Part shown: positions 4,206 to 21,465 of the stretch, piece by piece
Layout: each line of letters starts with the position of its first letter
Position numbering within the stretch: the first letter of the stretch is position 1
DNA from: a bacterium
Lineage (GTDB): Bacteria > DRYD01
Assembly (NCBI GenBank): GCA_030549815.1
Contig: JAUQQQ010000011.1
Span: forward strand, 31,758 to 53,846
DNA: 22,089 nt
Direction: 5' to 3'
Notes under the pieces: generated by a model
Told to the model about the DNA's origin: nothing
Seen by the model: only the letters and a program-made list of their open reading frames with translations
Databases searched by the model: none
Translations under genes and position numbers: made by a program

Positions 4206-5399
4206 ATGATGCACAAGAATACATCAACAAAAATAAACATCGATAAAAATCTTTTTTACAAAATAAAATCAGGATATCTCTGGATTTTTAATAATGAAGT
4301 AAAAGTGCAGAGTATTGAGGATGGACAAATCATTGATTTTTACTATGATAGAAAATTTGTTGCAAAAGCTTATTACAATTCAAAATCCAAAATAGCTTTT
4401 AGAGTTATTAATTTTGAAGATAAAGAGATAGATTCAGAATTTTGGTTTTATAGGTTCAAAAATCTTTATGAATGGAAATCTTCTGTTTATGGAGATAATT
4501 TCAGATTAGTTTATTCTGAAGGTGATTTTTTACCGGGGTTAATTATTGACTTATTTACAACTGTCGATGGGAAGAAAATTGCCGTTGTTATGTTATTAAC
4601 GTTAGGCATAGAAAGACAAAAAGAAAACATATTTAAAGCTCTTAAAAAATTAGGAGTAGATTGTATTATTGAAAGAAGTGATAGTAACCTTAGGAAGCTT
4701 GAGGGGTTGGAATTAAGAAGAGGTATAGAATTTGGAAAAATAGAGATACCATTTAAAGTAAAGATAGATGATATTTATTTTCTTATTGATCCTCTTAATG
4801 GTCAGAAAACAGGTTATTATTTTGATCAAACTGAAAATAGAAGGTTTTTGAAGAGTATATCTCAAGGTGCTACTGTGCTTGATGTTTTTAGCTATATAGG
4901 AGCTTTTTCTTTGTATGCTTTGAAAGGAGGAGCAAAGTTTGTAGAGTTAGTAGATGAATCAGCTTTCGTATCTTCAGTTATCCCTAAAATAATGGAGTTA
5001 AACAATTTTCAAACTAAATATATTTTTCATAATGATAATGCTTTTACAAAGATGAGAGAGTTTGTTTCTCTGGGAAAAAGTTTTTCAATAGTTATTTTAG
5101 ATCCTCCATCTTTTACAAAAACTAAGGAAAAAAAACAGAATGCTTTAAAAGCTTATTTTGATATAAATAATATTGCTTTGAGGTTGGTTCAAAATGGTGG
5201 TTATTTGGTTTCTTCATCATGTTCTCAGAAGGTAAGAGAGGAAGAGTTATTGGATGTTATTAGGTCAGCATTTTTTAAGCAAGGTGTTATCGGTAGTCTT
5301 GTATATATTGGTAAGCAATCATTGGATCATCCAATAAACTTAGCAATGGAAGAAACTAACTATCTTAAATTTTTTGTCTTCAGAATATACCATAGGTGA
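4206..5399 (+). CDS. RlmI-like class I SAM-dependent rRNA (cytosine-C5) methyltransferase
   Basis: A 397-residue protein with the RlmI (YccW) layout: an N-terminal PUA-like RNA-binding domain (about 1-85, with SGYLWIFNNEV), a linker domain, and a C-terminal Rossmann methyltransferase. Motifs are NGQKTGYYFDQTENR (198-212), the SAM loop LDVFSYIGAFSLYA (225-238), ILDPPSF (297-303) and the cysteine motif SSSCS (336-340), whose C339 is the likely catalytic nucleophile. RlmI methylates C1962 of E. coli 23S rRNA; the exact target here is inferred. The start could be either of two adjacent ATGs (4206 or 4209), preceded by AAGG. It follows kbl closely. Its stop is a few bases from the right end of a decayed IS605-type element. 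Confidence 0.83.
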   Translation: MMHKNTSTKINIDKNLFYKIKSGYLWIFNNEVKVQSIEDGQIIDFYYDRKFVAKAYYNSKSKIAFRVINFEDKEIDSEFWFYRFKNLYEWKSSVYGDNFRLVYSEGDFLPGLIIDLFTTVDGKKIAVVMLLTLGIERQKENIFKALKKLGVDCIIERSDSNLRKLEGLELRRGIEFGKIEIPFKVKIDDIYFLIDPLNGQKTGYYFDQTENRRFLKSISQGATVLDVFSYIGAFSLYALKGGAKFVELVDESAFVSSVIPKIMELNNFQTKYIFHNDNAFTKMREFVSLGKSFSIVILDPPSFTKTKEKKQNALKAYFDINNIALRLVQNGGYLVSSSCSQKVREEELLDVIRSAFFKQGVIGSLVYIGKQSLDHPINLAMEETNYLKFFVFRIYHR

Positions 5400-6607: not shown

Positions 6608-7357
6608 CTAATTTTTTGTTTGTTTAATGTTTTTGTTTTCTTTTTGGAAGAGTAATGCTCCCATATATTCTTTTACGGTGTTAATCTTAATTGAGGGATA
6701 ATTAGTTTTGAAATCTCTTGTTAGTCTGTTATCTTTAAGTGGTGGGTAGTTTTCAAACATAAAGTGTAGGAAATTGTTTAGCTGCGGTTCATTGGAGAAA
6801 GACATAATAAAAGGCATTATAATATTGAAAAACATTTCTTCTTTTCTCTGAATTCCTATACCTTTGAAATCCATAATTTTTTTGAGAATGGAAGTGGGTT
6901 TTGTGTTTCCAATCTGTTGATTTATTTTTTTCTGAAAGTAATTAACGAGTCCGATGCTTACTGTTTCTGAAAGAAGATGAGAGATTCCTTTTATTCTTTT
7001 GTCTGGGAAATTTGCAGGTCTTGTCCCTTTGTATTTCCAGATTGTTTTTGACATTCTCAAGGAGAAATCAAAGGAAGATGGTATATCGGTTTTATCCTCT
7101 GTCAATCCTGCTCTATATAGGAGTGCTTTTTCAATGATTTTTCTTGTTCCAAGTTTTTTTATTTCGGAGTATGGGGTGAGCAATGCGAGTTCAAGGAAGT
7201 TAAGCTTGTTGTTAGGGTATCCTAAGGAAAGCATAATTTCGCGATAAAGTGCCTCATCAGGATCAGCTATTTTCAAAAGGTTATGCATTCTCTGAATTTT
7301 AAGTTCAAGCCATTTTTTACCGTAATATTTTAAATCAGGGATAGTTTCTTTGGTCAT
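6608..7357 (-). CDS. DUF2851-like protein, C-terminal half only
   Basis: 249 residues. The middle reads RLSK-like SLRMSKTIWKYKGTRPANFP, then an amphipathic stretch, FKGIGIQRKEEMFFNIIMPF and a helical end. This order (RPANxP, a GIG turn, a NxxLPF-like helix) is what I recall from the C-terminal half of DUF2851 proteins, which are normally about 400-450 residues. The N-terminal half is missing: a TAA lies two codons before the ATG, no Shine-Dalgarno is visible, and directly upstream are short TTGGCGATT repeats. It is the last gene of the minus-strand block. It may be a truncated relic left by recombination. Function unknown. Confidence 0.5.
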   Translation of the reverse strand: MTKETIPDLKYYGKKWLELKIQRMHNLLKIADPDEALYREIMLSLGYPNNKLNFLELALLTPYSEIKKLGTRKIIEKALLYRAGLTEDKTDIPSSFDFSLRMSKTIWKYKGTRPANFPDKRIKGISHLLSETVSIGLVNYFQKKINQQIGNTKPTSILKKIMDFKGIGIQRKEEMFFNIIMPFIMSFSNEPQLNNFLHFMFENYPPLKDNRLTRDFKTNYPSIKINTVKEYMGALLFQKENKNIKQTKN

Positions 7358-7462: not shown

Positions 7463-8191
7463 TTAACATTTGGAGATTGCAAGTTCAGTATAAGGGAATT
7501 GTTCCCATATTTTACCATCAAGGATTCGTCCTGTCTTTTTTTTATTTTTTCCACCCCATTGTTTGAAGAAGAAGGGAATTTTTTTTTCTATACAGATATC
7601 TCTTATTTTTCTTACCCACTCTGCTTCTAAGGGTCTTGCACCAGGACCACTTTCGCCTCCAACTATAACCCAGTTAATCCCTGACAAATCGGGGCATACA
7701 GGGCCAAGCAAAGGTTCAAAAGATATAAACTTAATCCTTGCTTTTGATTGTTTTAGATATTCTATTCGCCATATATAATCTTGATTTTCAACTGATACCC
7801 CCATCCATATATTATCTGACCATCTTAAAAGATCATCTTTATCATATTTCAGAAGTATATGTGGCCTTTTGGTTAGAATCTGAAATATATGTTGCTTATT
7901 TTCGTTCATTACTTTGAAAACTTGCTGAATAAACTCAATAGGAACATTTTCGTGAAACAAATCACTCATAGAATTAACAAATATCAAGGATGGTTTTTTT
8001 ATGAAATAAGGTTTAGATAATTCTTGTGGATGCAGAGTAATTTTAAAACCATTTCTGTATTTATATAATCCCATTACTTTAAGACGCAAAGCAAACTTTT
8101 CTGCATAACAATTTTTACAACCTGGAGAAATTTTTGTGCAACCTGTTATTGGATTCCATGTGTATTTTGTCCATTCAATTTTGCTTGTCAT
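7463..8191 (-). CDS. DUF5131 (phage Gp37/Gp68-like) three-Cys-motif protein
   Basis: A 242-residue protein with the signature of this family: IEWTKYTWNPITGC at the start, then the three cysteines C18, C25 and C28 in TGCTKISPGCKNCYAE, which look like a metal or iron-sulfur site. Further motifs are FVNSMSDLFHE, QILTKRP, NIWMGVSVENQ, FISFEPLLGP and WVIVGGESGPGARP, then FFFKQWGG near the end. The set resembles a small radical-SAM-like barrel; the biochemical activity is not established to my knowledge. It follows tcmP by 12 bp and has a strong GAGAGGAGG site. DUF5131 and TcmP are known neighbours in phage and defence regions, and the pair here looks intact. Confidence 0.88.
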   Translation of the reverse strand: MTSKIEWTKYTWNPITGCTKISPGCKNCYAEKFALRLKVMGLYKYRNGFKITLHPQELSKPYFIKKPSLIFVNSMSDLFHENVPIEFIQQVFKVMNENKQHIFQILTKRPHILLKYDKDDLLRWSDNIWMGVSVENQDYIWRIEYLKQSKARIKFISFEPLLGPVCPDLSGINWVIVGGESGPGARPLEAEWVRKIRDICIEKKIPFFFKQWGGKNKKKTGRILDGKIWEQFPYTELAISKC

Positions 8192-8203
8192 TTTTTCCTC
8201 CTC

Positions 8204-9115
8204 TCAATTTTTTTTACCAATAATATAATTTGCTATTTTTAATGCTGTTTCATTATTTGAAGCGAAAATGAAATGATATATAACAGAATTTTTTGAATTT
8301 TTTAATTCTAAAGGTTTTTCAGAAACATATTTCCATATAGTTTTTAATCTTTCAACATAGAGTTGAGCAATTTTATTTATTGCGTCTGGATCTTTTGTCT
8401 TCTTATCTTTTTGTTTTCTAAATAAATTGCTGTTTGTTTCTTCCTTATAAAAATAATTCTCAATTTCTTCTTTTGTTATTCCGAAGAATGTTTCAATTTT
8501 TGCAGATTTTTTTAACTTTCCATTTTTATCAAGTAATCGGTTTACAGCCACACCTGTTGGTACCAAGATCCACATATCTATTCTAATTCTAATATCTTTC
8601 AGATATTCAATAGATTTCCAATTTATTTCCATACCGAATGGGTCCAACATTACAAGAGCAACACTACTCTTATTCTTCTTCATTTCTTGGGAAAAATCCT
8701 TTAACACCTCATTAACATCTCCATGAATGAATTTGCAATTTTCAAATTTTTCAGGAAATTTTTCTTTGACATATTTTTCAAGCTGTTTTATATTTTTTTT
8801 AACTACATCTACAAAATAATGAATATCAAATCCAGGTTTTAATTTCAGAACTCTTTCAGGAGAACCTTCATAAACTTTTGCTTCTTCTGGAGTTGAAGTA
8901 AAATTTGGGAACAAAAGTTGAACATACTTTATTTCTTCCTCACTTTTATCATATTTTCCTCTACCGGCAAATCCATCGAAGTAGATTATCTGTGATGGCC
9001 AGCTCTTATATTTCTCTCTCTGACGATGCATTATTTTAAGATAAGCTCTTACATATTTTTCAAAGGCTTCAAGCTTTTCCTCTGTCCATTTTCCTCCCCA
9101 ATCTTTTTTTATCAT
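8204..9115 (-). CDS. tcmP: Three-Cys-motif partner protein TcmP
   Basis: About 303 residues with the hallmarks of TcmP: an N-terminal WGGKWTEEKLEAFEKYVRAY, the glycine-rich loop IIYFDGFAGRGKY of a Rossmann methyltransferase-like fold, FIHGDVNEVL, and ALVMLDPFGMEINW as the motif IV equivalent. The family is defined by sitting beside proteins with a CxxxxxxCxxC motif, and the next gene is exactly such a protein. The substrate is unknown. Start choice: AAGGAG at 9125-9130 lies 9 bp from ATG 9115 but only 3 bp from an in-frame GTG at 9121, so 9115 is preferred; the GTG start would overlap the upstream stop by 3 bp. It is tightly linked to the nuclease-methylase gene before it and probably co-transcribed. 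Confidence 0.88.
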   Translation of the reverse strand: MIKKDWGGKWTEEKLEAFEKYVRAYLKIMHRQREKYKSWPSQIIYFDGFAGRGKYDKSEEEIKYVQLLFPNFTSTPEEAKVYEGSPERVLKLKPGFDIHYFVDVVKKNIKQLEKYVKEKFPEKFENCKFIHGDVNEVLKDFSQEMKKNKSSVALVMLDPFGMEINWKSIEYLKDIRIRIDMWILVPTGVAVNRLLDKNGKLKKSAKIETFFGITKEEIENYFYKEETNSNLFRKQKDKKTKDPDAINKIAQLYVERLKTIWKYVSEKPLELKNSKNSVIYHFIFASNNETALKIANYIIGKKN

Positions 9116-9117
9116 AT

Positions 9118-12100
9118 TCACACACTCCTTGCTTTTTCTAATCTGTTTTTGACTAATTCAGCGACTGCCCAATATACTTCTTTTCTCTCTTCCTCAGTTA
9201 AACCAAGTGCATCAAACACAATATCATCAAGCGCTTTCCTGTCAGGCAATGGATTTGGCTCCTGCAAACGAATGGGCTTTGAGGGATCAAAACCAAGCTC
9301 AATGAAAATTGATTGGGGTGCATAATCACTAAAAAGTGAAATTTTATTCATTATATTCCTTATTTCTTCTTCTGTTAAATTTTCTGGATTAATTACAATC
9401 AATGGTTTCATTTCTGGAGCATAAGTCTGTAAAGCACCTTATCCTAATCCTGTTCTTCCATATATTTCCACCATTAAAAAATTTATAGATGTATTTAAAA
9501 TAAAGGCCAATACAGAAGCATGTTTTTTAAGAATTAAATAATAATATACATGGTCTGTTAATATATGATCTTTATTCCAAGGAAAGAGGTATCTTTCATT
9601 AAAAAATTGATTAAATAAAATATCAGCATTAGGTAATTTGGGTAGAATATACCATTTTTCTCTTCCTCTGCATGTTGGTCTTTTTTGAAATTCTTGTTTT
9701 TCTCCCCATTCAATATATTTTAATGCATTTGTTTCTCTTAGTTTTGATTTTTCTTCGTGGCACATAAAAACGAGATGGTTTAAGTCTTCAAGCCGAACTA
9801 TGATAGTTTTCAATTCTCTTGGGCTTTTTATCACTGGTTTTAAGAATTTTGCTTCAATCTCACCTTCCCATCCTGCACCATTTCTTACAGGAATTAAAGC
9901 ATAAGGGTCTTTTTCAGAAATTTCAACAACCTCTTTAACAGTCATCCCTATTGGTTTTAAATAAAAGAATTCATTCGCTCCTGTTGTAAATCCTCTTCTT
10001 ACTTCAGCAATGTCTCCTAATCTTACGAGTTTATCTTTCCCTTTTTCTAAAATTTTAAAATATATTTCGGGGGCACGGAGATACTTCCCACCCCACTTGT
10101 TGCCTATGTATTTTTTGAATTCCAAATTTTTATAAAGCTCTTTTTCCTCATCATCAACTTCAACCCCTTCAAGTAAGAGTTCATCTTTGGTTTTTGGAAA
10201 AATTCTGAAATCTTCATCGTCAAAAATTGGTTTGTTCGCTTTCGCTATTCTTTTTAAAACATCTGGTTTCATCACATCTTCAAACGTTTTTTTGAAAGCT
10301 ACAAATTTAATTGTGAAGTTTTCAGGTTTATTTTCAGGTCTTTTTATTAAAACTATTACTGTATTTACATCTGCTTGTTTGAATGAGCGCTTTTTGAGGT
10401 TATCAATAATCATAATTGGTTCCATATTTTTGAGCAAAAACTCCTGAAGCCCAGCACCATATCCCACATCAAGCCAAGAATTTGAATTTATAAAACAAAA
10501 AATTCCACCAGGACGAAGCAAAGATAAAGATTGATAGTAAAAATAAACATAAAGATCACTTCTTTTATCTATTACATTTATTCCCCATAAGTTTTTAACT
10601 TTTTGAAGAAGTTTTTCTTTGTATTCTTTTTTGATTTCTCTCCATTTATCATCATCGTAATCGTTTTTATTAAGAAGAGGAGGAGCTATCATCTCCTGTC
10701 TTACATAGGGCGGGTTCCCTATAACTATGTCAAAACCACCTTTTAATGAAAAAACCTCAATAAAGTCAATCTCCCACAAAAAGAAATCTTTTGCTTTGTT
10801 TTTTTCAATCGCTAAAAGAGTGTTTTCATATCTTTTAATATCGTTCTCTAAATTTTTTTTCTCGTTTAGTAGTTTTTCTATTTTACTTTCTGTTTTTTGA
10901 TCCTTTTTGTCCCAAAGATATCCTTGTCCTTCGATCATTTTTATATCTTGTTCTATTTGCTCTATTTCTTTTTTCTTCTTTTCTATTTTGTCAAAAATTA
11001 TCTCTTTGAATATTTCTTTTTCGAATTGTTCAATTTCTTTTAATTCTTTTAAGTCTGCGCTTCGTGTTCCCGAGAAAAACTTAAATTTTCGATCTATAAG
11101 TTCGTTTATCTTTTCTCTGATATTTTTAGGGAGGATTAACATTTCATTTCTCAAATCAATGGGAACATCTGCAATTTCTTGGATAAGTGAGTCACCTTGA
11201 CGGATTTTGAAAGAAAGGTTTGGTAATAAGGGGTTTTTATAAATGTTCATTTCTTTTTCATCTGTTTCAATTATAAGAGAAAGCCATAGCCTTAGTTCTC
11301 CAACCATAACGGCCCAATCTTTAACATCAACCCCATACAGACTATTGAGAATTATTTTTTCTTTTAAAGCAAAAAGGTTTTCTTCTTTGTTTTCAAGTTT
11401 TCTTGATATTTCTAAATGAAGTTGAACCAAAACATTCATCATTCCCACGAGGAAGGAAGCAGAGCCTACTGCAGGGTCAAGAATTTTTACATCATCTAGA
11501 AATTTCTTTATGCTTTTTAATTCATTTTCCTCAAAAACATTAACGCCTTCCTGAGGATTAAATACGAAATCAATGAGTTTTTCTTCTGCTAAATTTGTTT
11601 TTGATTTCAAATAATTTACAAGAGATAAGCGACACATAAGATCGATTTCAATTCTTGGAGTATAGAATACTCCTGCTTCCCCACGTTCTTCCTCATTTAT
11701 AAGAGATTCATAAACTTTTCCAATCATTTCAGGGTCAACTGCAACTTCGACATCAAGCTGAGTAGATTCATCAATAGTAAAGTTGTAAATTTCCAGAAAA
11801 CCTTTCCTTAAATCTTTATTGTCTGGTTCAAAGAGCCATTCAAAAACTTCATCCGGCACATCAAAACCAATTTCATCAAGCTCTGTCTTAGAAAATAAAC
11901 CACCGTTTAAGAAAGGCATTATGCGAAATGATTCTTGTATATCATCTGGTAATTCTTTGCTTATAAAATTCGATTTCTTATTAAAAGCTCCAAAGAAAAG
12001 AGAAGAAAGCCAATCTGAATAGAATTTATTGATCTTTTGTGTTCTTTCCTTCCATTCTTTATATTTCAGCCACAGGTTTTTCATATAATTTTTATCTTGC

Positions 12101-12858
12101 TGATAATCTTTCCATTTAAGCCAACCCTTTCTTTGCAGGAAATAAAGAAACATAATCCTTGATAGTAAAAGTTGAGCAAATGAATGTTTTTTATCATATG
12201 GTTTTGTTTTATCAAGGGATGGGATAATGATATTATAAACGGCATGTTTATATGCAGAAAAGAATTCATTTGTTACAACTTCTACATCAAACGCTTTTTC
12301 TAAATCTTCAAGGGTGGGTTTTTGTCTATCGTTTTCAAGTATATGAATAAATCTTGATTGAGCGGTATGACTTTTTTCGTTTTTACCAACAAGAAAGGAT
12401 CATCTCTTTGCTGGAGTGAATTCTTCTTTAACTTTCAATTTTCCAGAAGGGGTTTTTTCAAAACGATAATCTATTTTGACTAAGGAAAATCGCCAATCTT
12501 CATTATCTGGGGACACGAAAGCGACGATAGCAGCATCCTTTGGTTCTCCACTTATACTTTCCTTCAAATACCATGCAATTAAATTTCTTTGAGTTGTTCT
12601 TGCTTGCTCAAGTGACGATCCTTTTTTGAGATTGACAATTAAAAGATCAATCTCTTTATCTTCGTAAGTATATTTACCAATCCTTTCTAATGAACTTACG
12701 TAGTTTTCAAATGCAGCAGGTATATAATTGCCTTGATATACAAATGATTTATCTTCATAGGATTTTAGGAGATTTTTGAGAAAAATTATGAACCTGTTCT
12801 TATCAAAAGGATTTTCAAATGTTTCAATTATAAGTTTCTTTGCCTGTTCTCTGTTCAT
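9118..12858 (-). pseudogene. Type IIG-like (Eco57I-family) nuclease-methylase with two in-frame stops
   Basis: One frame of 1247 codons from ATG 12858 (ACGGGGGAAAT upstream) to TGA 9118-9120, broken only by TGA at 12400-12402 (codon 153) and TAA at 9439-9441 (codon 1140). Residues 1-150 look like the N-terminal nuclease part (EDKEIDLLIVNLKKGSSLEQ, then ARTTQRNLIAWYL). Next come FLVGKNEKSHTAQSRF, the helical FAQLLLSRIMFLYFLQRKGW, the N6-adenine methylase SAM loop DPAVGSASF (D461), the catalytic NPPY (715-718), a target-recognition region, and a C-terminal tail after GRTGLG. Family members read through both break points (TPAKR-[Y]-SFLVG and GRTGLG-[E]-GALQ), so the stops look like point mutations. 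The helicase gene ends 26 bp upstream. Type IIG enzymes combine cutting and protective adenine methylation; with the helicase this would be a restriction-type defence. Readthrough, or separate pieces acting together, are alternatives. Confidence 0.75.
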
Positions 12859-12884
12859 TTTATTTCCCCCGTAATTTTTTCAAT

Positions 12885-15800
12885 TTAGCTTAAATAGAGT
12901 GATAGTATAACTTCTCCTTTTCCTGTTGTTTGTGTGTAGTTTTCTGAATAGTGGCTTTCAAGAAATGAGGGAGAAATCTCTTGTTGTAAAATGCCGATTA
13001 CCTTTGATGGGTTTTGCATTTCAGTATTTAATTCTTTAATTTTCTTTAAAATTTTTTGGACGGTTTTTTTGGGTAAAGCTCCTTCCTTAAGCTTTGTTAT
13101 AACTTTTTTTAGATAGTTTTGCAGGTCTTCTGTTAATTGCTTGCTGTTTTGTTGTGTTGCTTTTAAAATTTTTAAAAGCTCTGTTGTATTATCTGAACCC
13201 CTATGATTATAAACAATTTCTTCATTAGTTGCATCAGAAAAAGCAATTTTATTCTTATCAAGTAGTTCGTAATAATCTTCAAAGGGTAATTTAGCTCTTT
13301 TTGTATCTTGGGAACTTTCGAGGATTTTTACTGCAGTTAAAAAGTCAAGCTCAATCGTTTTATTCTTGTCTGATATAAAGAATTTCATCAATTTACCTTT
13401 CCTGAAAAATGTCAAAAGAGAATTTTGGATGGGAATATCTAAGTTAATATCTATTAAGTTAATATCTGTGCTATATTTTGCTGAGCGAGCTTTTTTAGGA
13501 AGCCGCTTTATCTTTTCAAAAAGTTCAGGATTTTTGTCACGTATATCTTCAATAATTCTCAGATATTTTAACTCACTTTCTTCTTCCTCATCTTCTGTAA
13601 TAGTTTTTGTTGAAAGTAGTTTGTCAAATAATTCGTGAGAAGATACTGGTTCACCTTCGGTAAGTATAGCGGAGTCGTTTCCAAGCAAAGTTAAAAATGC
13701 CTCTACTTTAGAACGTGCGATCTTTGTAAGCTCAATTTCAGAATCTGCTTGTTTTGTCGGGAAAAAATTAAATGTATAAATTTTATCAAAGGGTGTATCA
13801 ATTCTATTTACTCTACCTACTCTTTGCATAAGTCTTGTTGGATTCCATGGTATATCGTAGTTAATCACAATGTTTGATCTGTGAAGGTTTACACCTTCTG
13901 AGAGGACTTCAGTTGATACAAGTATCCTGTATTCATCTTTTTTGTTTCGGGCTTTTGCATCAAAATTTTCTATTATTTTGGTCCTTATATCTTCCGGAGA
14001 ACTACCATGAAACAAAAGAGTAATCTCACCAAATTCTTTATTTATATTTTCTTTCAAATACTCAGCGGTCTCTTTTGATTCAGTAAAGATAATTATTTTT
14101 TTGTTTTTAAGTAAGGGATTGTTTTTTAAGTTATCGATTAATGTTTCGAGTTTTGGATCCCTTTTTACAGATTCCCACATAGTTTTTATTTGTTTTAAAA
14201 TTTTAAGGTCATTTTCAAGATCATGTTTTAGATCTTTGCTAAATTCTTCGCTACTATATTTTTTGGCTTTACCTTCTTCGATAAGTTTTTGAATTGCTTC
14301 ATCATCTCCTTGCTCTAAAAGCTCAAAAATTTTGTTTGGGTATCCTCTGATTATATACACACTTCCCTTTTCATATTCTTGAATAAATCTTTCGTAGGAA
14401 TAAATGAATCTTTCGATGCTTTTTCTGAATGCATAAAAGCTACTTTCAAGACGTTTAACAAGAAGCACTTTCATAAATCTACCCATATTTCTTTGTGATT
14501 GTTCTTCAAGGTTAGTGATTCCTTTTTTTAGATAGAGTAATGGCATATAGCGAGTATACTTAAATTCTTTAGTTAGTAAGGTGATTGTATCCATGAAAAT
14601 TTCATCTTCGATGTTATTTAGTTGGTAATAGAGAGGTTTTGGGTTTTCTACTTCTGGAGATTTGATATTATTTTTCTTTAAATCTTCGGCGAAATATTTT
14701 TCAATTTCAGTCCTTGTTCTCCTAACCATTAAGTATTTTAAAATTTTATTACGAATTTCTTTAGCATTATTCTTTGTTATTTCAAGGAATTTTTGGTAAT
14801 CTTTATCTTGCTTGATAGTGTTTAGTTTTGTTTCAAGTTTTAAGAAGAAATCTTCGAGATTTCTGACACCTGGTATAGTGCTTTTTGTTGGATTTTGGAA
14901 AAGTTTAATCAGGGAAAGAATATCTTTGGGGGAGTTATTGTAAGGAGTTGCTGAAACTAAGATAACTCTTTTTCCACGGCAAATTTCAGCAATCTTTTCA
15001 TAACTAATAGTTGTTTCTGTTCTAAAACGATGAGCTTCATCTATGATGATATTTTTAAACTCTCTTTGTTTTGTTTTTTCTCTTGCTTCATCGAGTTTTC
15101 CAATCGATACGAATTCAGCTGGGATATGGAAATCGTAAAAAATGTTGGGCCAGGAGCCAGGATTCTTTTCATCAAGAAGTGCAGGGGGAGCTATCACAAG
15201 AGTTCTACCATCAAGTTGAGCTGCAAGCATAGCGGCAATGTAAGTTTTCCCAAGCCCCACTACATCAGAAATAAAAACACCACCATATTCCTCTAATATT
15301 TTCTTTGCATTTAAAACTGCTTGCTTTTGATATTCAAAACTTTTGAAATCGGCAGGCAAGTATCTTGTGAAAATCTCATCTGTTTGTGATAATTCATCCT
15401 TAAAATACTCATATAAAAATTTAAGATAAAGTTCATAGGGGGTAATATTTTGATTGAGCCAAGTTTTTTCATTTAAAGTCTCTACAAAATTTTCGGATAC
15501 ATCGACTGATTCTTCCCATAATTCTTCAAATTTTTGTTTTGCAAATTCATAATCGGCACGGTTTTTTAACTCAACATTAAATTCGAGGTTATCAACGAGG
15601 CCTGATTGAGTAAAATTACTTGAGCCAGTAATAACTCTTCCTACATCCCGATCGCCTTCTTTGAATGTCATTATGTATAATTTTGCGTGAATATTTCCAA
15701 ATGGATAAGCTCTTATTTGTAGTTTCCCGGCCCTTATCCATTCAATAAACTTTTTTACTCCCTCTTCAACACTTTGATTATCTTCTGATTCTTCCATTTC

Positions 15801-16094
15801 ATTTTCTATTTCAGATTCAACTATTTGTTTTATTTCTGAATGAGAAGGGGGTGAATTTTCTGTGCTTTTTCTTATTAAATTGTAGGTTTCTTTATTTGTG
15901 CCAATTCCAATAAGAATTCTTATTTTTTCAGTTTTTTCAAGTGATTTATATATTGCATGAAACCCACTTATATAAAAATAAGCGACTAAGCAATCAAAAA
16001 ATTTGCAATCTTTTATAAGTTGTTCAAATCTATCTTTTAGAGTTTGACCTGGTTCATTGGAAATAAAAGTTAAATCTAAAGGTGGCTTTACCAT
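12885..16094 (-). CDS. PLD-domain SNF2/DEAD-like helicase of a restriction or defence system
   Basis: An intact 1069-residue protein. Residues 1-200 form a phospholipase D-like nuclease domain with a single HxK motif (H136 in NIHAKLYIM) and GSSNFTQSG (157-165), so it would have to dimerise to form a PLD active site. Residues ~240-780 form a superfamily 2 helicase: Q-like FEYQKQAV, Walker A DVVGLGKTY (277-285), DEAH (352-355), VSATPYNNS (380-388), then the second RecA lobe with IIIFTESKETAEYL, VLSEGVNLH and the arginine-finger motif QRVGRVNRID. The last ~270 residues are charged helices with no family I recognise. It is the first intact gene of the minus-strand block and feeds directly into the nuclease-methylase. 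By analogy with other helicase-methylase pairs it would be the ATP-driven DNA-translocating or scanning subunit; that is inference. Confidence 0.87.
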   Translation of the reverse strand: MVKPPLDLTFISNEPGQTLKDRFEQLIKDCKFFDCLVAYFYISGFHAIYKSLEKTEKIRILIGIGTNKETYNLIRKSTENSPPSHSEIKQIVESEIENEMEESEDNQSVEEGVKKFIEWIRAGKLQIRAYPFGNIHAKLYIMTFKEGDRDVGRVITGSSNFTQSGLVDNLEFNVELKNRADYEFAKQKFEELWEESVDVSENFVETLNEKTWLNQNITPYELYLKFLYEYFKDELSQTDEIFTRYLPADFKSFEYQKQAVLNAKKILEEYGGVFISDVVGLGKTYIAAMLAAQLDGRTLVIAPPALLDEKNPGSWPNIFYDFHIPAEFVSIGKLDEAREKTKQREFKNIIIDEAHRFRTETTISYEKIAEICRGKRVILVSATPYNNSPKDILSLIKLFQNPTKSTIPGVRNLEDFFLKLETKLNTIKQDKDYQKFLEITKNNAKEIRNKILKYLMVRRTRTEIEKYFAEDLKKNNIKSPEVENPKPLYYQLNNIEDEIFMDTITLLTKEFKYTRYMPLLYLKKGITNLEEQSQRNMGRFMKVLLVKRLESSFYAFRKSIERFIYSYERFIQEYEKGSVYIIRGYPNKIFELLEQGDDEAIQKLIEEGKAKKYSSEEFSKDLKHDLENDLKILKQIKTMWESVKRDPKLETLIDNLKNNPLLKNKKIIIFTESKETAEYLKENINKEFGEITLLFHGSSPEDIRTKIIENFDAKARNKKDEYRILVSTEVLSEGVNLHRSNIVINYDIPWNPTRLMQRVGRVNRIDTPFDKIYTFNFFPTKQADSEIELTKIARSKVEAFLTLLGNDSAILTEGEPVSSHELFDKLLSTKTITEDEEEESELKYLRIIEDIRDKNPELFEKIKRLPKKARSAKYSTDINLIDINLDIPIQNSLLTFFRKGKLMKFFISDKNKTIELDFLTAVKILESSQDTKRAKLPFEDYYELLDKNKIAFSDATNEEIVYNHRGSDNTTELLKILKATQQNSKQLTEDLQNYLKKVITKLKEGALPKKTVQKILKKIKELNTEMQNPSKVIGILQQEISPSFLESHYSENYTQTTGKGEVILSLYLS

Positions 16095-16287: not shown

Positions 16288-16346
16288 TCATTACCTTTTC
16301 ATTACTTTCATTACCCAATCATTACCTTTCTATTACTTTCATTACA
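16288..16346. repeat. 31-bp tandem duplication across the stop codon of the AlbA_2 gene
   Basis: On the minus strand GTAATGAAAGTAATAGAAAG plus GTAATGATTGG (31 bp) is followed by an almost identical copy. Within each unit GTAATG recurs about every 10 bp. The first copy encodes the last residues of the protein (VMKVIER and the stop), the second lies just beyond. The protein end is therefore itself made of the repeat. Confidence 0.75.
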
Positions 16347-17424
16347 TAGTAGGTATTTTTACCTTTTCCTTCCTCTTTTAAAAAGCCTTTACTGATCAAA
16401 TCTGAAAGTTCAAAAAAAGCAGTTTTATTTGAAACTAAATTTATCTCTCTATATTCCTTATTAGTAATTTTTCCTCTCTCTTTTACATACATAATAGCCT
16501 TAATTTGCCTTTCATTCAATCCCATTTTCTTTAGATTTTCTTCTGTGTAGATATTTATCAGCATAGAAAAACACGTTAGCAAGCAAGGGATTGCGAAGTT
16601 TTGAAGGGTGCTCATGTTTCAACATTTCAATTGTAATCTCTGGAGGTAAGGTCCCCGGGTTCATAATAACTAATTTATCATCATACACGCGGATTTGTAT
16701 CTCAGAAGTGCTTAAATAGTCTCTATGAATTAAGGCGTTAATAATAGCTTCTCTAAGAGCTTCATAAGGATATTCAAGTATCTCCTTTCTATGAATCCCT
16801 TCGAAAATTGTCTTGCTTATAAGGTATTTTGTTCTTAATATATCCAGAGATTTTTCTAATTGCTCAAATAAATTCCCTTCGACTATATCAGTGGATATTA
16901 TGTCTGTTAAAGATTTAAATCTGCCAATTTTTATTTTTGCTTGTATGTAAAATTTTTGTGGATTTTTAGAAAAAAGGAGTATGCCTGCCTTTGTGATTTT
17001 TCCTTCCTTTATTAAATTAAGCTTTTCTAAAATGGTATTCCAGTAAACCATCCCATGTTTGCCCTGTTTTTTGAAGGAGAAAAGTTATTAGCTCTTGTCC
17101 TTCCAGTGTTTGGGTGGTGCTACCAGAACGGATATAAAACTTTCCATTGTAAGAAATAGGAAAGCTTGAAGGATTAACTTTTATTTCAATAACTGGCTTG
17201 TCCTTCATTTTTATCAGATTTATTTCAGGCAAAATTCCAAGCTTATTTTTTATTTTATTCGGTAGAATTTTAAGCAACTTTTTGTGATCTTCCAGCCCTA
17301 TTATATTGCCTTTATCGTTTATCCCTATAATTAGCTTTCCTCCTTTTGAATTTGCAAATGCTGAGATAGTAGCTAAATATTCATCCTGCCAGCTTTGTTT
17401 ATATTCAATCTCTTGGTCTTCCAT
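16322..17424 (-). pseudogene. AlbA_2 (Schlafen/RecG-like) putative transcriptional regulator, broken by two deletions
   Basis: Three overlapping frames make one family protein. 17424-17017 is the AlbA_2 domain (EYKQSWQDEYLATISAFANS, KGGKLIIGI, FYIRSGSTTQ, WDGL). 17051-16512 is the middle part (KITKAGILLFSKNPQKF, EALREAIINALIHRDYL, IRVYDDKLVIMNPG, HPSKLRNPLLANVFFYA). The third frame ends at 16322 and is the winged helix (LNERQIKAIMYVKERGKITN, then KNTYYVMKVIER). Family members have roughly 60 residues between WDGL and the LEKLNLI segment, and roughly 80 between FFYA and the winged helix; both blocks are missing here and the frame changes at each junction (near 17017-17051 and near 16550-16565). 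The intact protein would be a DNA-binding regulator of about 480 residues. It precedes the helicase-methylase operon, which it may once have controlled. Confidence 0.75.
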
Positions 17425-19196: not shown

Positions 19197-20078
19197 ATGA
19201 CGAAAAGTGTTTTTTATTTTGCTGATGGTAAAAATGCTGCTAAAATTAGGGAAGTAAGTAAAGGGTTTGGGATCACGACTGTCTGTGAGGATGCCAGATG
19301 TCCTAATAGGGGATTGTGCTGGCAAAATTTAAGTGCAACATTTTTACTATTGGGTCCTATATGCACAAGATCTTGTAGGTTTTGCTTTGTTAAAAAAGGT
19401 AATCCTTTGCCTGTTGATTATCAATCTATACCGAAGTTTGCTAAATCATTGGCCAAATTTGGTTTAAAGTATTACACTTTTACCATGGTTACAAGGGATG
19501 ATTTACCCGATCATGGTGCTGATTATCTCTTCCAATTGTTTTATCATCTTAAAAACTTCAATCCGAATTGTTATATAGAGGTTCTTATTAGTGATTTGGG
19601 AGGGGATGTAAAAAATCTAAGAATTTTATTTCAAGACAACGATATTATTGACGTTTTAGCTCATAATATTGAAACTGTTAGAAGGATTACACCTATCATA
19701 AGAGATAAAAGATTTGGATATGAGAAAAGTTTGCAAGTTTTGTATAATGCTAAAATGATTAACCCGAAAGTTGTTACTAAAAGTTCTATTATTGTTGGGT
19801 TTGGGGAAAGAGAAGAAGAAATATACGAAGCAATGGATGATCTGTTAAACGTTGGATGTGATGCTTTAACTATAGGACAATATTTTAGACCTTCTTTGAA
19901 AAATATCGAAGTTTGTAAAATATATACTGATCAAGAGTTTGATAAATTAGAGAGGGTTGCATTGGAAAAAGGATTTTATTTTGTTAAGGCTGGTAGAAAT
20001 GTAAGGACATCTTACAAAGCTTATGAGTTAATAAAATTGATAGAAGTGAGGAAGGGTGGTTGTTATGGTAAGAGTTGA
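19197..20078 (+). CDS. lipA: Lipoyl synthase
   Basis: 293 residues, standard length. LipA is a radical-SAM enzyme that inserts two sulfurs into octanoyl groups on lipoyl domains of 2-oxoacid dehydrogenases and the glycine cleavage H protein. The auxiliary cluster is bound by C30, C35 and C41 (CEDARCPNRGLC) and the radical-SAM cluster by C56, C60 and C63 (CTRSCRFCF). Other family motifs are VTRDDLPDHGA, DVLAHNIETV, KSSIIVGFGE and TIGQYFRPS. Near the end GRNVRTSYKAYE replaces the usual GPxVRSSY; the second serine, which ligates the auxiliary cluster, is kept. The start ATG 19197 has no Shine-Dalgarno and follows the previous stop by 6 bp. No lipB or lplA is in the window. Confidence 0.95.
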   Translation: MTKSVFYFADGKNAAKIREVSKGFGITTVCEDARCPNRGLCWQNLSATFLLLGPICTRSCRFCFVKKGNPLPVDYQSIPKFAKSLAKFGLKYYTFTMVTRDDLPDHGADYLFQLFYHLKNFNPNCYIEVLISDLGGDVKNLRILFQDNDIIDVLAHNIETVRRITPIIRDKRFGYEKSLQVLYNAKMINPKVVTKSSIIVGFGEREEEIYEAMDDLLNVGCDALTIGQYFRPSLKNIEVCKIYTDQEFDKLERVALEKGFYFVKAGRNVRTSYKAYELIKLIEVRKGGCYGKS

Positions 20079-21465
20079 ATATGATCCAATGGGTAGTGTT
20101 GAAGTGCCTTCTGAAAAGTATTGGGGAGCTCAAACTCAAAGAGCTCTTTTAAATTTTAGAATTAGCTCAAAAAAATGGGATGATGAAATTATTAAATCAA
20201 TCATTTTAATTAAAAAAGCGGCAGCGGAAGTTAATCATGAATTAGGACTTCTTGATCAACTCAAGTATGAACTAATTGTAAAAGCATGTGATACTTTATT
20301 AAACAATTGGGAAAAGTATAAAGATAACTTTCCTCTTGATGTTTTCCAAACTGGCTCGGGGACTTCTACTAACATGAATGTTAATGAAGTAATAGCTAAT
20401 TTGGCTTCAGAATTGGCAGGTAAAGAAAGAGGATCGAAATTCATACATCCTAATGATGACGTTAATAAGGGCCAATCATCTAATGATGTAATACCAACAT
20501 CTATTAGAATTGCTTCATATAAAATGGCGATAAGATTAATCAGAAAAATCAGAGAGTTGATAGATATTTTTAAAGTTAAAGAAAAGGAATTTGAGGGGAT
20601 AATAAAAACTGGTAGGACTCACCTTATGGATGCTACGCCTATTCGCTTGTCTCAGGAATTCTCAGGCTATCGAAGACAGTTAGAATTAAGTGTTGAAAGG
20701 ATAAGTGAAGTTTTTAAGAGGATAAGGGAGCTTCCCATTGGTGGGACTGCTGTGGGAACTGGGATAAATACTCATAAGGAGTTTGGAAGGAGAGTTGCTG
20801 AAAAAATCAATACCTATCTTGAGAACGAAATAGATTTTAGTGTTTATCCTCGGTTTATCGAAGCTATAAATCATTTTGAAGCTCAATCAACGATTGATGC
20901 TGTTATTGAGTTAGTAGGTAGTTTAAAAATTTATTGTTTAGCTTTAATGAAGATAACAAATGATATAAGATGGATGGGGAGTGGTCCTGTTGGAGGAATT
21001 GGGGAATTATTGTTGCCTGAGCTTCAACCGGGGTCTTCTATAATGCCGGGTAAGGTAAATCCAGTAATTCCTGAAGCTGTTGGAATGGCATGCTCTTATT
21101 GTATAGGTCTTGAATATTCATTAATCGTTGCTAATCAATATTCAAATTTTGAGCTATCTACAACTTTTCCTTTGGCTGGTCTTGTTATTTCTGATTGTTT
21201 TAATATTTTATTGAATTTAACTGAAACTGTTGGAGAAAAACTGATAAAAGGATTGAAACCTAATTTAGAGAGAATAGAGAGTATTGTTAATTTTAATCCT
21301 TCTGTTGTTACTCCTCTTGCTAAGGTATTGGGATATGATAAAGCTTATGAAATTGTTAAGAAAGCACTTAAAGAGAGAATGTCGATAAAAGAATATTGTA
21401 TAAAATACAATGTTTTGAAACTTGAGGAAGCTGAAGAATTGTTGGATCTTGAGAAGATGGTTTAA
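20065..21465 (+). CDS. fumC: Class II fumarate hydratase
   Basis: 466 residues from ATG 20065, with GAAGGG 8 bp upstream; the gene overlaps lipA by 14 bp, indicating translational coupling. It catalyses reversible hydration of fumarate to malate. Motifs: VEVPSEKYWGAQTQRAL near the N-terminus, TGSGTSTNMNVNEVIANLA, DDVNKGQSSNDVIPTSI, GRTHLMDATPIRL, and the superfamily signature GSSIMPGKVNP. YWGAQTQR and NMNVNEV favour fumarase over aspartase, which usually has YYGIHTLR and NMNANEV. Substrate assignment within this superfamily is still not absolute. A C-terminal domain (LNP-like FNPSVVTPLAKVLGYDKA) is present, so the gene is complete. CRISPR-like repeats begin 6 bp after its stop, with no clear terminator between. 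Confidence 0.93.
   Translation: MVRVEYDPMGSVEVPSEKYWGAQTQRALLNFRISSKKWDDEIIKSIILIKKAAAEVNHELGLLDQLKYELIVKACDTLLNNWEKYKDNFPLDVFQTGSGTSTNMNVNEVIANLASELAGKERGSKFIHPNDDVNKGQSSNDVIPTSIRIASYKMAIRLIRKIRELIDIFKVKEKEFEGIIKTGRTHLMDATPIRLSQEFSGYRRQLELSVERISEVFKRIRELPIGGTAVGTGINTHKEFGRRVAEKINTYLENEIDFSVYPRFIEAINHFEAQSTIDAVIELVGSLKIYCLALMKITNDIRWMGSGPVGGIGELLLPELQPGSSIMPGKVNPVIPEAVGMACSYCIGLEYSLIVANQYSNFELSTTFPLAGLVISDCFNILLNLTETVGEKLIKGLKPNLERIESIVNFNPSVVTPLAKVLGYDKAYEIVKKALKERMSIKEYCIKYNVLKLEEAEELLDLEKMV

What the first reader, a model, noticed from the sequence alone, without database searches (positions are those of the whole stretch)
7463..16094. Helicase-PLD, nuclease-methylase, TcmP and DUF5131 in one block: candidate composite defence system
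Four genes on one strand with gaps of 26 bp or less: a PLD-SNF2 helicase, a type IIG-like Eco57I-family nuclease-methylase, TcmP and the three-Cys-motif DUF5131. The first two form a plausible restriction pair with separated motor and modification parts. TcmP/DUF5131 is a known pair of unknown chemistry. The tight spacing suggests that all four act together, possibly with TcmP (methyltransferase-like) and DUF5131 (radical-SAM-like Cys site) adding a second nucleic-acid modification. I cannot match the whole set to a named system.
Basis: partly seen in the sequence, partly recalled or inferred. Interest (0 to 1): 0.65.

Follow-up and report, generated by a model that had tools for sequence, protein, structure and literature searches.

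The report
Decayed restriction operon with swappable add-ons
This is a partly broken bacterial DNA-restriction operon (a nuclease-helicase plus a DNA methylase) that carries an exchangeable add-on, a methyltransferase-like protein paired with a radical-chemistry enzyme, which recurs beside the same restriction pair in a small minority of other microbes and may act as a second line of defence.

Summary
The methylase frame has two in-frame stops (TGA at 12402-12400, TAA at 9441-9439), so ORF 9118-9411 is its C-terminal end. A fifth gene upstream, a Schlafen/AlbA_2 protein (17424-16322), is a pseudogene with two internal deletions. The helicase, TcmP and DUF5131 frames are intact.

The PLD-SNF2 helicase and methylase are a real unit: the methylase follows the helicase on the same strand in 82 of 85 testable loci across many phyla. 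The methylase C-terminus is hypervariable, like a target-recognition domain. Two slots around the pair carry swappable genes typical of restriction operons: AlbA, BRO, RhuM, Fic, HEPN/MNT, AAA_13/PrrC-RloC type, OLD, ApeA, DarT.

TcmP/DUF5131 is one such add-on. It or an equivalent lies downstream of the pair in 5 of 57 loci. Local linkage exceeds random placement (P about 1e-4), but most copies of each module lack the other. DUF5131 has a radical-SAM fold closest to spore photoproduct lyase; TcmP has an RlmJ/Trm1-like methyltransferase fold.

Verdict: a restriction operon with a minority accessory module, not an obligate four-gene system; this copy is probably dead for restriction.

The parts
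12885..16094 (-). PLD-SNF2 helicase/nuclease, 1069 aa, intact: PLD HAK (136), Walker A GLGKT (280), DEAH (352), SAT (381), QRVGRVNR (757)
   Evidence: relatives up to 77% identical over full length
9118..12858 (-). Eco57I/PglX-like N6-adenine methylase with variable C-terminal target-recognition region; pseudogene with in-frame TGA at 12402-12400 and TAA at 9441-9439
   Evidence: intact relatives L138:7921-11634 (65%) and L011 (59%)
9118..9411 (-). C-terminal end of the methylase after the second stop, not a separate gene
   Evidence: in frame with the methylase; matches the C-terminal part of Thermus and Allomeiothermus relatives
8204..9121 (-). TcmP (three-Cys-motif partner), class I methyltransferase fold, DxFAGxG and DPxG motifs intact; probable ATG at 9115, 2 nt after the methylase stop
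   Evidence: TIGR04474 E 1.2e-48, PADLOC PDC-M41A; motif conservation; AF2 model pLDDT 75, RlmJ Z 14.9
7463..8191 (-). DUF5131 (PDC-M41B), radical-SAM fold with CX6CX2C cysteine site (C18, C25, C28)
   Evidence: PF07505 E 1.4e-94; TIGR04471; AF2 model pLDDT 93.5, spore photoproduct lyase Z 13.7
16322..17424 (-). Schlafen AlbA_2 / HATPase_c_4 accessory gene, pseudogene with two internal deletions
   Evidence: PF04326 and PF13749 hits in separate ORFs; alignment to L013 AlbA
6608..7357 (-). DUF2851-type ORF, 249 aa, 105 bp past DUF5131; possible further add-on
   Evidence: PF11013 E 5.7e-10; directly follows the methylase in L138

Best explanation
This is a decayed restriction-modification operon. 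Core (inferred from sequence): the methylase recognises a DNA site with its variable C-terminal domain and methylates adenine (NPPY motif). The PLD-SNF2 helicase docks on it, and at unmethylated sites it translocates or remodels DNA with ATP and cuts with the PLD active site, as in type I/ISP-like enzymes. Two slots around the core hold exchangeable second-line genes. Here slot 1 held an AlbA_2 protein (now a pseudogene) and slot 2 holds TcmP-DUF5131, a methyltransferase-like protein plus a radical-SAM enzyme. That module is a self-contained pair found mostly elsewhere, probably modifying or repairing nucleic acid, and is sometimes recruited next to this core. In this genome restriction is probably off, because the methylase, which also carries the specificity, is broken. 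Shown here: core conservation, slot contents, recurrent linkage, folds, lesions. Inferred: all activities, and the accessory role of TcmP-DUF5131.
For: Methylase downstream on the same strand in 82 of 85 helicase loci. Methylase conservation falls from 0.5-0.8 in the first 560 aa to 0.2-0.4 after about residue 807. Slot genes are AlbA, BRO-N, RhuM, Fic, HepT/MNT, TumE, PIN and AAA_13, AAA_15/OLD-type, ApeA, DarT, Ymh, AbiJ, overlapping the PrrC/RloC, RhuM, Fic/Doc, ApeA and Ymh genes reported in restriction operons (PMC3710099). TcmP with DUF5131 or another radical-SAM enzyme lies downstream of the core in L086, L135, L136 and L031. Local adjacency: 2 of 16 against 0.016 expected (P 1.2e-4), while genome-level co-occurrence is not enriched (P 0.20). 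An intact core without TcmP/DUF5131 exists (L138). Lesions. Folds.
Against: No activity has been shown for this helicase-methylase family. Random placement is a weak null because defence genes cluster in islands. The methylase stops could be assembly errors, since reads were not available. The operon spacing, with the TcmP start 2 nt after the methylase stop and a 1-bp overlap in L135, hints at tighter coupling than loose cargo.
Confidence: 0.7

Rival explanations
1. One composite system: helicase, methylase, TcmP and DUF5131 act together, TcmP/DUF5131 adding a second nucleic-acid mark that guides or licenses restriction.
For: Tight spacing in the window; same position in L135 (1-bp overlap) and L086 (4-8 bp gaps) in unrelated genomes; local linkage P about 1e-4.
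Against: Most cores lack the pair (52 of 57) and most pairs lack the core (51 of 54; none of about 68 near it). The nearest intact core has none.
Confidence: 0.12
2. Chance neighbours in a defence island: the TcmP/DUF5131 pair simply landed beside a decaying restriction operon and has no functional link to it.
For: AlbA and methylase are decaying; genome-level co-occurrence is not enriched (P 0.20); TcmP/DUF5131 also sits in plasmids and phage-like contigs without the core.
Against: The module recurs on the same strand downstream of the methylase in at least four other genomes, once fused and abutting.
Confidence: 0.3
3. TcmP-DUF5131 is a nucleic-acid repair pair (spore-photoproduct-lyase-like radical enzyme plus methyltransferase) that mends damage, and is not a defence gene at all.
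For: DUF5131 aligns best to spore photoproduct lyase (Z 13.7, 190 residues, 2.8 A); an SPL-family protein occupies its place in L136.
Against: A shared fold does not show function; PADLOC lists the pair as candidate defence families PDC-M41/M30; TcmP occurs beside BREX genes and is grouped with the Hna phage-defence gene in S. meliloti (PMC12445080).
Confidence: 0.2

Closest known systems
Type I and type ISP restriction-modification (HsdRMS; LlaGI)
   Same: SF2 motor with nuclease plus N6-adenine methylase with its own recognition domain, and accessory genes of the same kinds
   Different: Nuclease is PLD, not PD-(D/E)XK; motor and methylase are separate genes, no separate HsdS found (type features from general knowledge)
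CglI / NgoAVII (PMC5737866, PMC4267653)
   Same: A separate endonuclease (R-protein; PLD family from general knowledge) working with a helicase-like ATPase beside a methylase
   Different: There nuclease and ATPase are separate proteins; here PLD and SNF2 are one chain and the methylase is Eco57I-like
Type-2 BREX-related (BR) systems (PMC12839542)
   Same: HKD nuclease fused to a Swi2/Snf2 helicase, with an N6-methylase
   Different: BR systems carry a DUF499 ATPase, DUF3780 and a DUF1156 methylase; none was seen here
DISARM (DrmD/DrmMI)
   Same: Helicase and methylase are distant relatives of DrmD and DrmMI
   Different: Scores far below the curated DrmD cut-off; no DrmA, DrmB or DrmC genes in the block
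PADLOC PDC-M41 / PDC-M30 (TcmP + DUF5131)
   Same: Window pair matches both M41 models strongly
   Different: No mechanism known; here it abuts a restriction core

Membership tests
PDC-M41 (TcmP + DUF5131 candidate defence pair) | Both model proteins adjacent | tested here: met
   M41A 330 bits, M41B 367 bits, adjacent, 12 bp apart
Radical-SAM superfamily (DUF5131) | Partial TIM-barrel radical-SAM fold | tested here: met
   Spore photoproduct lyase Z 13.7, viperin-like Z 11.2, RlmN Z 11.0
Radical-SAM superfamily (DUF5131) | Classical CX3CX2C cluster motif (not universal in the superfamily) | tested here: not met
   Spacing is CX6CX2C, kept in 39 of 41 relatives
Class I methyltransferase (TcmP) | Rossmann methyltransferase fold with a motif I | tested here: met
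   RlmJ Z 14.9, Trm1 Z 14.2; DxFAGxG conserved
N6-adenine methyltransferase (TcmP) | DPPY/NPPY motif IV | tested here: not met
   Motif is DPxG
Type IIG restriction enzyme (methylase gene) | Eco57I-type methylase domain with NPPY | tested here: met
   PF07669 E 1.1e-27; NPPY invariant; PADLOC IIG model
Type IIG restriction enzyme (methylase gene) | N-terminal nuclease domain in the same chain | tested here: inconclusive
   No Pfam nuclease domain in the N-terminal 300 aa of four relatives; no clear PD-(D/E)XK motif
Type-2 BR system | DUF499, DUF3780 and DUF1156 methylase in the locus | tested here: not met
   Pfam scan of window ORFs found none
DISARM | DrmD helicase above curated cut-off | tested here: not met
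   168 bits against a cut-off of 610
DISARM | DrmA, DrmB, DrmC genes present | tested here: not met
   No such genes among window ORFs by Pfam or PADLOC
BREX | PglX above curated cut-off plus PglZ | tested here: not met
   PglX models 35-60 bits against 400-900; no PglZ
Type I/ISP-like restriction | ATP-dependent site-specific cleavage of unmethylated DNA | not testable with these tools
   needs biochemistry

The most novel reading that the evidence does not exclude
TcmP plus a spore-photoproduct-lyase-like radical-SAM enzyme (DUF5131, a fused radical-SAM domain, or an SPL-family protein) is a new second-line arm of restriction operons that uses radical chemistry on nucleic acid, triggered when the restriction core senses or is blocked by a phage.
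Probability: 0.2. Interest if true: 0.75.

Novelty: new variant of a known kind. Interest (0 to 1): 0.42.

Why it matters
A widespread PLD-SNF2 helicase plus Eco57I-like methylase pair with two cargo slots is a ready test bed for how restriction cores recruit back-up effectors. The repeated pairing of TcmP with different radical-SAM enzymes gives a concrete chemical hypothesis for DUF5131/TcmP, families found on plasmids (DUF5131 on about 400 records) and in phage-like contigs with no known role.

Tried and rejected
Fused helicase-methylase in the same genome (C22, 2210 aa): rejected, because the frame crosses a 100-N scaffold gap. Stop-codon recoding of the methylase: rejected, because the two stops differ (TGA, TAA) and neighbouring frames follow the standard code. 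An empty site in same-genus genomes: flank gene 4206-5399 lies in unrelated surroundings there, so island borders were not set. TcmP scan of viral contigs with the single window sequence: nothing found. Sequence search of solved structures for TcmP and DUF5131: nothing convincing. Literature on DUF5131: none in the library; for TcmP only passing mentions. Assembly error for the methylase stops could not be excluded, as no reads were available, but the AlbA deletions are hard to explain that way. No published description of this exact helicase-methylase pair was found, but the library holds only open-licence papers.

Full report
Observation. The window is G000:C19:31758-53846 of a 1.59-Mb, 23-contig genome in a phylum with only seven held genomes. 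The methylase frame runs 12858..9118 with two in-frame stops, TGA and TAA. ORF 9118-9411 is its C-terminus. Intact full-length relatives exist in L138 (65% identity) and L011 (59%). Upstream, an AlbA_2/HATPase_c_4 gene is split into three ORFs. Aligned to an intact relative it has two internal losses of about 36 codons with frame changes, which is genuine decay. Helicase motifs are all present, and TcmP and DUF5131 keep their conserved motif residues.

The core. A helicase-profile scan of 84,980 species genomes returned 80 loci from bacteria and archaea of many phyla, the best over 70% identical along the whole protein. In loci with more than 2 kb downstream the methylase follows the helicase on the same strand in 82 of 85. 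In Thermus and Allomeiothermus plasmids the order is reversed. Methylase motifs (DPAxGSG, NPPY) are near-invariant while the region after about residue 807 barely aligns, as expected for a target-recognition domain. The nuclease motif found is the helicase's PLD domain; no nuclease domain is detectable in the methylase N-terminus. This fits an ATP-dependent restriction enzyme whose specificity lies in the methylase. An intact helicase surviving beside a dead methylase is consistent with a motor-nuclease that needs the methylase for targeting (inference).

The slots. Genes between helicase and methylase are AlbA_2 (8 of 28 scanned), BRO-N (5), RhuM, Fic, HepT/nucleotidyltransferase, TumE and PIN. 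Genes after the methylase include AAA_13, AAA_15/OLD-type, ApeA, DarT, Ymh, AbiJ, YhcG and a TIR protein. Restriction operons carrying PrrC/RloC-type, RhuM, Fic/Doc, ApeA and Ymh genes as multi-pronged defence were described in 2013 (PMC3710099).

TcmP and DUF5131. They are adjacent in 25 of 30 genomic TcmP loci, while only 6 of 74 viral DUF5131 loci have TcmP. Near the core they or equivalents occur in five loci. L086: helicase-methylase-AlbA-TcmP-DUF5131-TcmP. L135/G183: helicase-nucleotidyltransferase-methylase-585-aa protein whose N-half is TcmP and C-half radical SAM. L136/G279: helicase-BRO-methylase-541 aa-TcmP-spore-photoproduct-lyase family protein. L031: helicase-BRO-methylase-OLD-TcmP fragment-DUF5131. 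L074: DUF5131 only. The association is a minority one: 5 of 57 helicases with more than 7 kb downstream. In one phylum-level sample 16 strong helicase genomes and 51 TcmP genomes share 4 genomes (P 0.20), yet 2 of the 16 helicases have TcmP within 10 kb against 0.016 expected (P 1.2e-4; the genome that led to the choice of phylum was left out). A second sample gave none near the 5 helicases. A third sample was searched for helicases only; none of its loci with enough downstream sequence had the pair. Random placement ignores defence-island clustering, so this shows linkage, not function.

Chemistry. The DUF5131 model (pLDDT 93.5) matches spore photoproduct lyase best (Z 13.7, 190 residues, 2.8 A), ahead of viperin-like and RlmN enzymes. 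Its cysteine spacing is CX6CX2C, not the classical CX3CX2C. In L135, L136 and Nostoc L008 a different radical-SAM protein takes the partner place, independent support for a radical-SAM function. The TcmP model (pLDDT 75) matches RlmJ (Z 14.9) and Trm1 (Z 14.2) with motif DPxG, not DPPY. The substrate is unknown.

Conclusion. A new variant of a known kind: a decayed PLD-SNF2/Eco57I-type restriction operon with swappable accessories, one of which is the TcmP/radical-SAM module. The composite four-gene system is not supported as an obligate unit.

Noticed in passing
G000:C22:12893-19500 (L242:4888-11520): A second helicase-methylase pair in the same genome reads as one 2210-aa protein, but the frame crosses a 100-N scaffold gap, so the fusion is not established.
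   Followed up: yes
window 6608-7357; L138:7104-7859; L013:20942-21187: A short DUF2851-type protein follows DUF5131 here and directly follows the methylase in L138; another copy follows an AlbA gene in L013. It may be a further add-on.
   Followed up: partly
L240, L241 (G002, same family): Two more helicase-methylase copies in a relative, with AlbA remnants and a helicase split into two ORFs in L240: the operon decays repeatedly in this lineage.
   Followed up: partly
L013:19392-20569: A 39-residue remnant of a methylase C-terminus 82% identical to the window's lies beside an intact AlbA gene, a possible scar of a lost copy.
   Followed up: no
L008:6838-8900 (Nostoc plasmid): TcmP lies divergent to a CX3CX2C radical-SAM gene instead of DUF5131, next to BREX genes.
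   Followed up: partly
window 19197-21465: A radical-SAM protein (19197-20078) and a lyase (20056-21465) overlap on the plus strand; probably a housekeeping operon.
   Followed up: no
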